Assembly: GCF_000011225.1 (NCBI RefSeq)
Contig: NC_004432.1
Span: 558,001 to 622,000, forward strand
Length of the DNA stretch: 64,000 nucleotides
Source: Malacoplasma penetrans HF-2
GTDB lineage: Bacteria > Bacillota_I > Bacilli_A > Mycoplasmatales > Mycoplasmoidaceae
Direction of reading: 5' to 3'
Each line of letters opens with the position of its first letter. Position 1 is the first letter of the stretch. The translations under genes and the position numbers were made by a program. The notes below the pieces were generated by a model. It saw nothing but the letters and a program-made list of their open reading frames with translations, made no database searches and was not told where the DNA came from. This document shows positions 13,884 to 19,335 of this stretch, piece by piece.

Positions 13884-15491
13884 ATGAAATTAAGCAAAAA
13901 ATTATTAATTGGAAGCATTACAACTCTTGGAGCTATTGGAGTTGGTGCAACAGTTGTAGCACCTTTAGCTAATGATGCAACTGTTGCAGCACCTTTAGCA
14001 GATTCAATTGCTCAAAAAAACTCAAGTGAAGTAGATGTTTTAAAAGATACTGCTGATAGTTCTAAAGAAGTTAATAACTCAGTTACTGAAGTTACTAAAC
14101 CTTCTGAAGATGTAAAAGCTGATACAGTAGTTACTGAAACTGCACCTTCTCAAGATGAAAAAGTTGATTCAGTAGTTACTGAAATTGTAACTCCTGAAGT
14201 TGAAGATGTAAAAGCTGATACAGTAGTTGATGAAGTATCTGTAACTGAACTAATAAAAGATGCTACTGCTCCAAAAGATGGAACAGAAATTGAATCATAT
14301 GTTCTAACAGATCCTGTTACTAACAATGAAGAATTAAATAAATTTTTAAAAGACAACTTTGATAATTTGGTTAAACCAACATTTAAAGGTTATTTTGAAA
14401 ATGTAGAGGTTTCTTATAAAGATAATTCTGCAGATTTTAATAAAAAAACATTTAAAATTAACATTAAACCAATTTCTGGTCATGGATGAGAAGATGGATC
14501 TGGCAATAAAGAAAAAGAAATGTCAGTTTATTTATCTAACATGTCATGATCAGCAAAGATTGAAATAGATTCTAATAAATCTGTTGCTTATGAAGTTTCT
14601 AAAATGGGATTCACTAGTGCAAACCACTTAAATACTTATTTAAGAAGTAATTTCTCATCTTCTAATTTAAAAAATATAAAATTTACTAATGTTGATCAAA
14701 TTCAATATGTTGAAGGATCAGCAAAATTAGCTGCTTCAGGTTCAAGTCAATTTACTATTAAAGTTACACCAAAAGCAGGAGCTATTTGAAACAAAAATGA
14801 GGGTTACCAATCAAAAACAATTAATGTTTTATTTGCTTCAGCAGTACCTGTAACTTCAGTTTCAAGTTCTGATAAATTTAACTATAGATTATCAATTGCA
14901 GATGTTTGAAACAATGATTCTTTTGGTAGCAAATTAACTGAATTATTTAGAAAACCAAATAATGTAAAATCAAACTTAATAGGTGATTATTCAAATGTTA
15001 ATTTAAAATTTGTATCTGGTTCAGCCAACTATGAAAAAGGTGAATTTAAACTAGCTGCAACTCCTATTAATGGTTTCCAGTGAAGTGATTTTACTAGTGG
15101 TGATAAAATAATAACTGTTAATGCTAATAATATTCAAAGATTTAATACAGCTCTTCCTGTTAAAGTTGGAAACAGTTTCTCAAGTCTTGTAAAATTAACT
15201 CCAGCACCTTCAATAGTTGTAACTGGTAAAACTAAAGATCATACAGCTTATGAAGCAAAATTCACTATTAATACTTATGCTGCTGAATTTGGATGATATT
15301 CAGTTTGAAGGTATTCAAAAGATGGTGGAAAAACTTGAAGTGCAACTACTAATATTGGAAAAACAAAAACATTCAATCTGTCATCATGAAAAGTACCTAA
15401 GGGTTCTTTAGTGAAGTTCCAAATTATGGGGAAAACATATTATACTGGTCCTGCAGTTGAAGCATATGCAATGACTTTTAATGCTGTTTAA
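13884..15491 (+). CDS. Tandem surface protein family, member 3
   Basis: A 535-residue paralogue with the signal-type N-terminus GSITTLGAIGVGATVVAPLA. A duplicated short stretch rich in Val, Ala, Thr and Asp follows, in which VKADTVV and similar units recur (about residues 70-120), making the linker longer than in members 2 and 4. Then come the three modules (near residues 150, 248 and 350) and the Asp-box SKDGGKTW (15315-15338). It ends in MTFNAV. No cysteine is present. The repeat-rich linker is the most variable part between members. Confidence 0.75.
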
Positions 15492-15516
15492 TTAAAATTA
15501 AATTTTAAAGAAAATC

Positions 15517-15555
15517 AAAAAAATGACTTGTGGTTTCACAGGTCATTTTTTATTT
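15517..15555 (+). terminator. Terminator of surface gene 3
   Basis: AAAAATGACTTGT / ACAGGTCATTTTT with a short loop and a T-run, homologous to the hairpin after member 1. 15556-15719 holds only AT-rich spacer. Confidence 0.75.
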
Positions 15556-15719
15556 TATTGAAGACAACCAGATTAATTATATTTATCTATTAATGTTTTA
15601 TGAATTATTAAATATTTTTTAGCAATTTTTTAATATATTTTAAATTTATTTTTCAATTAATTAATTTGTTATTTTACATACATTTTTTTAAAAATGTTTA
15701 AAAAATAGGCTTTAAAAAG

Positions 15720-15775
15720 TTGAAATGGTTTTTCTAATAAGGTAATATAAATAATGCCACAACATAAAGTTTTGG
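15720..15775 (+). promoter_or_regulatory. Promoter plus palindrome, surface gene 4
   Basis: TTGAAA (15720-15725), a 17-base spacer, TAATAT (15743-15748), then CCACAACATAAAGTTTTGG (15757-15775). This palindrome is one base shorter than in the other three copies, and its gap from the -10 box is one base longer. Confidence 0.65.
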
Positions 15776-15849
15776 CTTTTTTATTGGTATATATTTCTAA
15801 TACCAATAATAATCAAAAATATAAATTGTTAAAAAGGAACAAATATTAT

Positions 15850-17310
15850 ATGAAAATAAGTAAAAAATTATTAATTGGAAGCATTACAACTCTTGGAGCT
15901 ATTGGAGTTGGTGCAACGGTTGTAGCACCTCTAGCTAATACTGCAACTGTTGCAGCACCTTTAGCAGATTCATTCACTCACCAAAATTTAAGTGAAGTAG
16001 AAGTACTAAACAATGTTACTAATAATTCAGAAGAAACTAATTCAGTAGTTAATGAAGTTACTTCTGTTGAAGAAAAAACTGAAGAAGTTAAAAATGTTGC
16101 TACTGCTCCAGAAGGAACAGTAACATCAAATCTTCAAGTTCCAGCAGGTAATCAATATGATTTAAATTGATTCTTAAATGAATATTTTGAAACAAAAGTT
16201 AAATCTTCATTAAGTGGTGATTTTAAAAATGTAGATATTTTTTACAAAGTAAACTCAGCTAATTTTGAAAATAAAACTTTTCAAATTAAAGTTACTCCAT
16301 CATCAGGATATCAATGAAATGATAGTACTAATAGTGAAAAAGAAATAACTGTTTCTTTAACTAACATTATTCCATTAGCAGAAATGAAAATAGAATCTGC
16401 AAGAGTTATTAATTATAATGTACCTAGAGCACACTTTACTAGCACTGAACATTTAAACAATTATTTAAAAGGAACTTTTTCATCTAAAAATTTACAATAT
16501 GTAACTTTTAATAATGTTGAAAAAGTGGAATATGTTGATGGTTCTGCAAAAATGTCAGAATGAGGTTGAACATTATTCACTATTAAAATAACTCCAAAAT
16601 CAGGAACTGCATGATACAATGGCAGCACTCAACCAAGAACAATTTCTGTAAGTTTTGATTCAGCTGTTCCAGTGGCTTCTGTTTCAAGTACTGATAATTT
16701 TAGTTATGAATTATCTACATCAGATGTATCAAATGATAGTACATTCAACACTAAATTAGAAAGTTTATTTAAAGATCAAAATAATGTGAAAAAATATCTT
16801 TCTGGAAATTATTCAAATGTTAACTTAACATATGTAAAAAATTCAGCTAACTTTGCAACTAAACAATTTCAAGTAACTGCAACCCCTAGTGGAAATTACT
16901 TATGAAGTGATTACACTAAAACTGTAAAAACTATAACTATTAAAGCAACTAATTTTTTACAACTTAATACTCCACTTCCAGTTAAAGTTGAAAACAGTTT
17001 CTCAAGTTATGTAAAATTAACTCCAGCACCTACAATGGTTGCAACTGCTAAAACTATAAATTACACAACTTACCAAGCAAACTTTACTATTAGTCCTTAT
17101 GCTTATGAATATGGATGATATAATGTTTGAAGTTATTCTACTGATGGTGGTAAGACTTGAACTTCAAATAACAATGGTATGTCAAAAACTTTCAATGTAT
17201 CAAATACAAAAGCACCTAAAGGTTCTTTATTAAAGTTCCAAATTATGGTTAGATCATATTACAATACCCCAGCAGAAGAAGGGTATGCAATGACTTTTAC
17301 TGCAATTTAA
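15850..17310 (+). CDS. Tandem surface protein family, member 4
   Basis: A 486-residue paralogue. The N-terminus is nearly identical to member 3 (KKLLIGSITTLGAIGVG). The linker is short and Glu/Val/Asn-rich, then come three modules and the Asp-box STDGGKTW (17137-17160). It ends MTFTAI. An ATG-like frame extends upstream to 15754, but that part overlaps the promoter palindrome; the ATG at 15850 follows AAAAAGGAAC and aligns with the paralogues, so it is the start. The high identity of the first 30 codons and of the upstream bases with member 3 points to recent duplication or gene conversion. Confidence 0.75.
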
Positions 17311-17938: not shown

Positions 17939-19297
17939 ATGGCAAAACACAGAAGAAAAAACTATTCTAAACAAAGAAGAAAAAGTCACTCAAGAAAAAG
18001 TAATAAATACATATATGCATTATCAGTTAGCTTAGTAGCACTTGCAGTAGTTGGATATGGTGTTTATTATATAATTCAAAACAAAGAACAAATATTTTCT
18101 GGAAGCAGTAATTCTAATAATAATCAAAATCAAAGTTTAACAGGATATGGATATGTAAGAAGTCCATATGGTGCTAAATTTAAAATTGTAGATAGCAATA
18201 AAAGTTTTGTTATGGCTTCTTCTCACTTTGACTCTCCTGGTGCTTCAACTTCTGCTAATAGCTTAAATGAAGTTGAAACTAAAAGTTCAATATCTAACCA
18301 AGGTAGTCAAGAAGTTAAAGAAGCATCTAATACAGTTAGTGTTTTAGATGAATTTAAAACATATTTTAGTTCTGAAAATATTATCTTTTTTGCCGATACT
18401 AATATAAGAAAAGGGAATCAAGATAAAGCATTTAGTACTTTATCTAATAGTAGTTATTCAATGTTATTTAAAGACAATGATACCTATTCTACTTCTTTAT
18501 CTTCTACTGTTAATACTTTTGCTAACTCATATGATAAATTGATATATTCATTTAATAGTAATGATTTATCAATTTCTAATGGAACATATGATGATATTAA
18601 AAGTGTTATTAAACCAAATTATGAATCTAAAACAGGATTTGCTATCAATACTTATTTAACATTACCAAGTACTAACTTTACAGATGGACAAGGATGAGTA
18701 GATTATTCAGATAAGTATTATAGTAGTAACTCAGATGCAGTTTATAACTATGTTAAATATTTAATCTCTGATCATATTCCTGTAGGAACTGATATTAGCT
18801 ATAAAAATAATAGTAGTTCTGATTCAACTATTAGAGTTGGTGGATGAAACACTTTAAACTTCAATTTATACAATAAAGAGATACCTTCAGATTTTGATGT
18901 TTCAAACCCAACTAGTACTAACACTGAAACTAAAAGAATAGTTCATGAAATCAATGTTGCTAAAATCATTAGTAAAGCAAAATATGATTTAATTGGTTTA
19001 ATAGAAATTAATAAAAACACAACTCAAGAAAGTGTGAACTACTTTCTAAACTATTTAAATAGTGTAGACACAAATAACAATTCATACAAAGCACTACTAT
19101 CTGAAAATACTCCAGCTATCAAACAAGATAGTGGTCAAATAGAACAAGTAATATATTTATATAATTCTAAAAAGATTGAGTTAGATAATTCTATTAGTCC
19201 AAAATTCTATAACTCATATTCAGCTAGTACTTTAAATGCTTTTGACATTTTTATTAATTCATTAAATATTAATTATTTAAATAATAAAGAAATATAG
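17939..19297 (+). CDS. MnuA-like membrane nuclease, circularly permuted EEP fold
   Basis: A 452-residue protein. A very basic N-terminus (about 23 residues) and one membrane anchor (about 25-47) precede an ectodomain. Motifs of the endonuclease/exonuclease/phosphatase (EEP) superfamily are present, but the C-terminal half of the fold comes first: SPYGAKF and SSHFDSPGA (about 75-102), FADTN (151-155, equivalent to GDxN), SDH (277-279). The normally N-terminal half follows: RVGGWNTLN (299-307, catalytic Asn), LIGLIEIN (351-358, metal-binding Glu) and a YLYNSKKIEL strand (406-415). Mycoplasma MnuA-type nucleases degrade host DNA to supply nucleotides. All key residues appear to be kept, so an active enzyme is plausible. 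Confidence 0.8.
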
Positions 19298-19303
19298 AAA
19301 AGA

Positions 19304-19335
19304 AAAAATCCATTCAACTAAGAATGGATTTTTTA
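19304..19335. terminator. Bidirectional terminator
   Basis: AAAAAATCCATTC / GAATGGATTTTTT with a six-base loop. It has A- and T-runs on the two sides, so it can serve both the nuclease gene (plus) and the convergent gene at 19350 (minus). Confidence 0.85.

What the first reader, a model, noticed from the sequence alone, without database searches (positions are those of the whole stretch)
17939..19297. Circularly permuted MnuA-like nuclease
EEP-family motifs occur in the order (HFDSP, DTN, SDH) then (WNTLN, GLIEI), the reverse of the usual order of the two halves. All catalytic positions appear to be kept, so this looks like a true circular permutation of the fold, not a fragment. The new N-terminus carries the membrane anchor.
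Basis: partly seen in the sequence, partly recalled or inferred. Interest (0 to 1): 0.75.

Follow-up and report, generated by a model that had tools for sequence, protein, structure and literature searches.

The report
Circularly permuted mycoplasma surface nuclease
The gene encodes a membrane-anchored, DNase I-like nuclease whose two halves have swapped places in the chain while every catalytic residue is kept; the same swap arose at least twice in mycoplasmas, and a third rearrangement of the same domain occurs in close relatives, so one enzyme family has been re-cut several times by evolution.

Summary
ORF 17939-19297 (+, code 4, 452 aa) is a MnuA-family (EEP/DNase I-like) nuclease with the C-terminal half (model 112-327) before the N-terminal half (model 3-122). 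All catalytic residues are kept. AlphaFold gives a confident core. Its secondary structure matches, column by column, that of a canonical relative (85% versus 35% for shifted controls). It is not unique. Permutation CP-A occurs in 27 of the 133 genomes of the order with a MnuA-type match: 4 Malacoplasma and 23 genomes of another family. Canonical order dominates. A tree of un-permuted sequences puts the two CP-A groups in separate clades (one origin rejected, AU p = 0.00017). Three other Malacoplasma carry a second permutation, CP-B, cut elsewhere. This means at least three independent events, two at the same poorly conserved loop. A 1125-aa relative with two fused canonical domains is the kind of intermediate that permutation by duplication needs. 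The genome has no other recognisable EEP or SNase nuclease, so this gene is the leading candidate for the M. penetrans nuclease P40 (inferred). I found no paper describing circular permutation in this superfamily. Activity is not tested.

The parts
17939..19297 (+). ORF of the permuted MnuA-type nuclease, 452 aa (50.8 kDa), code 4, stop included
17939..18076 (+). Basic cytoplasmic tail and single transmembrane anchor (residues 1-46; hydropathy peak 28-46; no lipobox cysteine)
   Evidence: sequence
18149..18811 (+). Canonical C-terminal half placed first (residues about 71-291; model about 130-327): YVRSPYG, HFDSPG, SQEV, ADTN, SYDK, SDH
18812..18820 (+). Short new junction joining the old C-terminus to the old N-terminus (residues 292-294, 2-residue gap between the profile matches)
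18818..19237 (+). Canonical N-terminal half placed second (residues 294-433; model 3-122): WNTLN, GLIEI, EQVIYLYN
18224..18232 (+). Catalytic H96 and D98 (HFD)
   Evidence: invariant in CP-A alignment; maps to canonical H200/D202
18395..18403 (+). Metal/phosphate site D153 and N155 (DTN)
18770..18775 (+). Catalytic D278-H279 (SDH)
18845..18850 (+). W303-N304 (WNTLN), first strand of the canonical domain
19004..19006 (+). Metal-binding E356 (GLIEI)
19238..19294 (+). C-terminal tail, low confidence (residues 434-452); lies where the canonical inter-half loop was cut
19303..19334 (.). Intrinsic terminator-like hairpin usable in both directions, closing the gene
   Evidence: 2 found, 0.1 expected

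Best explanation
The gene encodes a cell-surface, membrane-anchored, metal-dependent DNase I-type nuclease of the MnuA kind that has undergone natural circular permutation. The old C-terminal half now precedes the old N-terminal half; the old ends are joined by a few residues, and the new ends lie in the poorly conserved loop between the EQV strand and the RPPYG strand. The chain still folds into one complete alpha/beta-sandwich, bringing N304, E356, E402, H96, D153, N155, D199, D278 and H279 into one active site outside the membrane. There it would cut extracellular nucleic acid for nucleotide salvage, as characterised MnuA proteins do. Shown here: order, completeness, residue conservation, anchor, predicted fold, and separate origins of the permuted clades. 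Inferred: enzymatic activity; origin by tandem duplication, fusion and trimming of both ends (a fused double-domain relative exists); identity with the M. penetrans Ca/Mg-dependent endonuclease P40.
For: Two profile matches in inverted order, covering the whole domain. Catalytic residues invariant in 16 permuted proteins, and each maps to its canonical counterpart. AlphaFold with only permuted homologues: pTM 0.75, core blocks mostly pLDDT 80-96. DSSP of the model agrees with that of the canonical M. testudinis model on 85.4% of 301 columns against a mean of 34.5% and a maximum of 49.2% for circular shifts. The canonical control superposes in sequence on the whole of DNase I (Z 26.1, 254 residues), whereas the permuted model finds the same families only at Z 11-13 and 7-10% identity, as expected if the chain order differs but the fold does not. 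Purifying selection on permuted genes: w 0.08-0.16 in four close pairs; 0.35-0.37 in Malacoplasma with dS 1.2-1.4. Cut loop among the least conserved places of the domain. Synteny with G004.
Against: No activity data and no solved structure. Mean pLDDT is 75, and the tails and several loops are uncertain. Pfam PF03372 finds nothing in the protein, although it also fails on the canonical relative. The P40 link rests on a locus tag in a review table and a position estimate.
Confidence: 0.9

Rival explanations
1. One ancient permutation inherited by all CP-A genes, in Malacoplasma and in the other family alike, with CP-B derived later.
For: Same cut loop in both groups; CP-A members share the same arrangement.
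Against: The tree of un-permuted sequences puts Malacoplasma CP-A with CP-B and canonical M. testudinis/M. amphoriforme proteins (100/99) and the other CP-A group elsewhere (100/99). A single CP-A clade is rejected, p-AU 0.000165. Trees from each half alone also keep the two groups apart. Linkers differ: -1 to 5 residues against 12 to 22.
Confidence: 0.07
2. A decayed or chimeric remnant: a pseudogene-like fusion of nuclease halves without function.
For: Some relatives in the family are broken: G008 CP-B is frameshifted, G205 CP-A is split, the first G058 copy has an internal stop.
Against: Intact ORF, all catalytic residues kept in four Malacoplasma species at 41-51% identity, purifying selection, confident fold, own terminator.
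Confidence: 0.04
3. The permuted chain works only as a domain-swapped dimer, each active site built from the first half of one chain and the second half of another.
For: Old termini are joined by a very short linker in Malacoplasma. Nothing here tests oligomeric state.
Against: The monomer prediction already gives a confident complete core. In canonical EEP folds the two ends lie close together (established knowledge), so no swap is needed.
Confidence: 0.05

Closest known systems
MnuA family membrane nucleases (NCBIfam NF045851; M. pulmonis MnuA, M. bovis MBOVPG45_0215, M. pneumoniae Mpn491)
   Same: Homologous over the whole domain above the family cut-off; same catalytic residues as listed for MBOVPG45_0215 (N84, E119, H238, D289, N291, D336, D398, H399; PMC12115388); surface location.
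   Different: The halves are in reversed order; new termini in the loop between the EQV and RPPYG strands.
DNase I / EEP superfamily (PF03372; DNase I, DNase1L3, TDP2, CNOT6L)
   Same: Predicted alpha/beta sandwich and active-site residues.
   Different: No permuted natural member found in the literature searched.
CP-A clade of the other mycoplasma family, e.g. Mycoplasma zalophi (L140), M. buteonis (L152), Mycoplasma sp. CSL7503-lung (L149)
   Same: Same order of halves and same cut loop.
   Different: Separate origin in the tree; longer linker (12-22 residues); usually lipoproteins with long N-terminal extensions rather than a bare transmembrane anchor.
CP-B proteins of other Malacoplasma (G005, G006/L133, G008)
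   Same: Sister clade, same N-terminal anchor style, permuted MnuA domain.
   Different: Cut after the YDK strand: only the SDH segment moved to the front (model 260-327 then 3-264).
M. penetrans endonuclease P40
   Same: Ca/Mg-dependent, membrane-associated/extracellular nuclease of the same species, about 40 kDa (name; from memory); the domain here is 40.5 kDa; a review table gives MYPE4380 (PMC9051441), which by interpolation lies within about 10 genes of this ORF.
   Different: Gene identity listed as undefined in another review (PMC12115388); P40 is called a lipoprotein in that table and this ORF has no lipobox; not proven.

Membership tests
MnuA family membrane nuclease (NF045851) | Whole-protein profile score over the curated cut-off (185 bits) | tested here: met
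   207.3 bits, two stretches
MnuA family membrane nuclease (NF045851) | Collinear match: N-terminal half before C-terminal half | tested here: not met
   Model 105-316 precedes model 8-115; hence described as a permuted derivative, not a plain member
MnuA family membrane nuclease (NF045851) | Membrane or surface localisation signal | tested here: met
   Basic tail plus one hydrophobic segment, residues 24-46; prediction only
EEP / DNase I-like superfamily | Catalytic N, E, E, H, D-N, D, D-H set | tested here: met
   N304, E356, E402, H96, D153, N155, D199, D278, H279 invariant in 16 permuted proteins and mapped to the canonical protein
EEP / DNase I-like superfamily | Complete two-sheet alpha/beta sandwich | tested here: met
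   Predicted; fold searches 43, 44 against control 72, 73. No experimental structure
EEP / DNase I-like superfamily | Pfam PF03372 match over the gathering score | tested here: not met
   No match; the canonical M. testudinis protein fails it as well, so it is uninformative for this family
EEP / DNase I-like superfamily | Divalent-metal-dependent nuclease activity | not testable with these tools
   Needs an assay
Circular permutation of a domain | Both segments present once, swapped, covering the whole domain, with the same fold | tested here: met
   permutation-aware superposition not possible without coordinates

The most novel reading that the evidence does not exclude
The MnuA domain is a hotspot of natural circular permutation: at least three independent events within the mycoplasmas, two of them cut at the same loop, with a living fused double-domain relative as the kind of intermediate involved. 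These would be the first natural permutations described in the DNase I/EEP superfamily, and the permuted Malacoplasma enzyme is the long-known but genetically undefined P40 nuclease of M. penetrans.
Probability: 0.5. Interest if true: 0.75.

Novelty: new variant of a known kind. Interest (0 to 1): 0.63.

Why it matters
Natural circular permutations are usually single, ancient and hard to reconstruct. Here canonical, CP-A, CP-B and fused double-domain forms coexist in closely related genomes, and one loop was used twice independently, so the rules for where a fold can be cut and re-joined become directly testable. It also gives M. penetrans, which lacks any other recognisable EEP or SNase nuclease, a concrete candidate for its known surface nuclease.

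Tried and rejected
Pfam on the protein: only spurious hits. Sequence search of the PDB with the permuted profile: matches confined to one half (best E 1.7e-4). The sequential structural superposition on DNase I and PDE12 (Z 11-13, 7-10% identity) was not taken as a true residue equivalence: it runs the first half of the model over the N-terminal half of the target, presumably through the pseudo-two-fold of the fold. Single origin of CP-A: rejected. Assembly artefact: rejected, since the order recurs in independent genomes. Chimera of halves from different parents: not supported, half-trees agree. Search for CP-A outside the two families in a 395-genome sample of the class: none. The paper reporting P40 as a pathogenic determinant is not in the library. 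Exact MYPE number: only interpolation was possible.

Full report
WHERE IT LIES. The window is bases 558001-622000 of a single-contig genome of 1,358,633 bases, which by size is Malacoplasma (Mycoplasma) penetrans HF-2 (from memory). ORF 17939-19297 (+) reads 452 residues with TGA as Trp. It stands alone: a terminator-like hairpin usable in both directions follows at 19303-19334. Upstream are two paralogous surface-protein-like ORFs and a small ORF; downstream, convergent, are a small ORF and an inorganic pyrophosphatase-like gene (names by eye). The small ORF, the nuclease, the next small ORF and the pyrophosphatase gene keep their order in another Malacoplasma genome, G004 (61, 50, 84 and 88% identity), so these two genes are orthologues in place.

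THE OBSERVATION. NCBIfam NF045851 (MnuA family membrane nuclease) matches in two stretches whose order is inverted. A profile built here from 42 canonical relatives places residues 52-291 on positions 112-327 and residues 294-433 on positions 3-122. Nothing of the domain core is missing and nothing is duplicated beyond a variable loop. In an alignment of 16 permuted proteins the invariant columns include H96, D98, E125, E128, D153, N155, D199, D278, H279, W303, N304, E356 and E402. Each maps to its counterpart in the canonical M. testudinis protein, which shares 36% identity over 301 columns; E128 is Asp there. The residues published for M. bovis MBOVPG45_0215 correspond (PMC12115388).

FOLD. 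AlphaFold2 with only permuted homologues (9 rows) gave pTM 0.75 and core blocks mostly at pLDDT 80-96; the tails and some loops are poor. A canonical control, M. testudinis, gave pLDDT 81. Laid out by profile column, the two DSSP strings agree at 85.4% of 301 columns; circular shifts give a mean of 34.5% and at most 49.2%. The canonical model superposes in sequence over all of DNase I (Foldseek E down to 5e-17; Z 26.1, 254 residues aligned). The permuted model finds the same superfamily but only at Foldseek E 5e-5, and Z 11-13 with 7-10% identity. That is what a permuted chain of the same fold should do with sequential aligners. A permutation-aware superposition was not possible because coordinates are not released.

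HOW WIDESPREAD. A profile in permuted order separates the genomes cleanly. 29 genes in 27 genomes match as one long collinear stretch (E 1e-76 or better). All other matches cover half the profile at a time (E 5e-52 or worse). 133 of 320 genomes of the order have some match. Four of the permuted genomes are Malacoplasma and 23 belong to another family, among them Mycoplasma zalophi, M. buteonis and Mycoplasma sp. CSL7503-lung and CSL7491-lung. An even sample of 395 genomes of the class showed none elsewhere. Several of these genomes also hold a canonical copy (G058, G206, G214, G182, G183). In Malacoplasma, three other species carry a different permutation, CP-B, cut after the YDK strand (model 260-327 then 3-264); one of the three is frameshifted. 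No canonical MnuA was seen in the 10 genomes of the genus searched.

ORIGINS. On a tree of un-permuted sequences (83 proteins; 109) Malacoplasma CP-A is sister to Malacoplasma CP-B, and both group with canonical M. testudinis and M. amphoriforme proteins (100/99). The other CP-A proteins form a separate clade (100/99) among canonical proteins. Holding all CP-A together costs 70.9 log units, p-AU 0.000165. Trees of each half keep the two groups apart, so the halves were not brought together from different parents. The joining linker is -1 to 5 residues in Malacoplasma and 12 to 22 in the other clade. Canonical order is that of the whole superfamily, so permutation is the derived state. This gives at least three events, two at the same loop. 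That loop is among the least conserved places of the canonical domain (first percentile at model position 124), and the CP-B cut is in a region of high length variation. Whether CP-A and CP-B in Malacoplasma arose separately from a canonical gene, one from the other, or from one shared fused duplicate cannot be told here.

MECHANISM OF PERMUTATION (inferred). Tandem duplication, fusion and trimming at both ends is the usual route. A relative in G238 is a 1125-residue protein with two complete canonical MnuA domains in one frame (143-468 and 769-1123), next to a third copy. It is not in the direct line, but it shows that such intermediates occur in this family. The N-terminal anchor was kept: canonical, CP-A and CP-B proteins of this lineage all start with a basic tail and one hydrophobic helix.

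FUNCTION (inferred). Surface, metal-dependent nuclease for nucleotide salvage, possibly with the roles described for MnuA and Mpn491 (PMC12115388, PMC7954426). Selection keeps the permuted genes: w 0.08-0.16 in four close pairs of the other clade; 0.35-0.37 between Malacoplasma species, where dS is already 1.2-1.4. The genome shows no PF03372 and no PF00565 match, so this is its only recognisable nuclease of these two kinds. M. penetrans P40 is a Ca/Mg-dependent nuclease whose domain is listed as undefined in one review and which is given locus MYPE4380 in another (PMC9051441). Interpolating from metS (MYPE9380 in PMC13215547; at about 1,255,567) and from a total of 1038 genes (memory), this ORF should bear a number between about MYPE4300 and MYPE4400. 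The link is plausible but unproven.

NOVELTY. No paper in the library joins circular permutation with MnuA, EEP or DNase I-like nucleases (the single paper holds both terms but was not read); subscription papers are not covered. I file it as a new variant of a known kind: a permuted derivative of the MnuA family.

Noticed in passing
L157 1264-4638 (G238:C1): A 1125-aa lipoprotein-like ORF with two complete canonical MnuA domains in tandem, beside a third single-domain copy.
   Followed up: yes
L133 4761-5948; L016 1234-2475; L043: A second, different circular permutation (CP-B) of the same domain in three other Malacoplasma genomes; the G008 copy is frameshifted.
   Followed up: yes
L117 2006-3982; L009 1498-2613; L114: Broken CP-A copies: split in G205, an internal stop in the first of two tandem copies in G058, and fragments in G127.
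   Followed up: partly
window 13884-17310: Two tandem paralogous ORFs (535 and 518 aa) with nearly identical N-termini (MK.SKKLLIGSITTLGAIGVGATVVAPLA), probably surface proteins.
   Followed up: no
L140 6240-8483; L094; L097; L127: Many CP-A proteins of the other family carry 200-530 residue N-terminal extensions, some of low complexity, before the nuclease; function unknown.
   Followed up: no
L128 22-2745 and L129 (G129): Very divergent MnuA-like proteins (long branches), one matching the profile in two overlapping pieces.
   Followed up: partly
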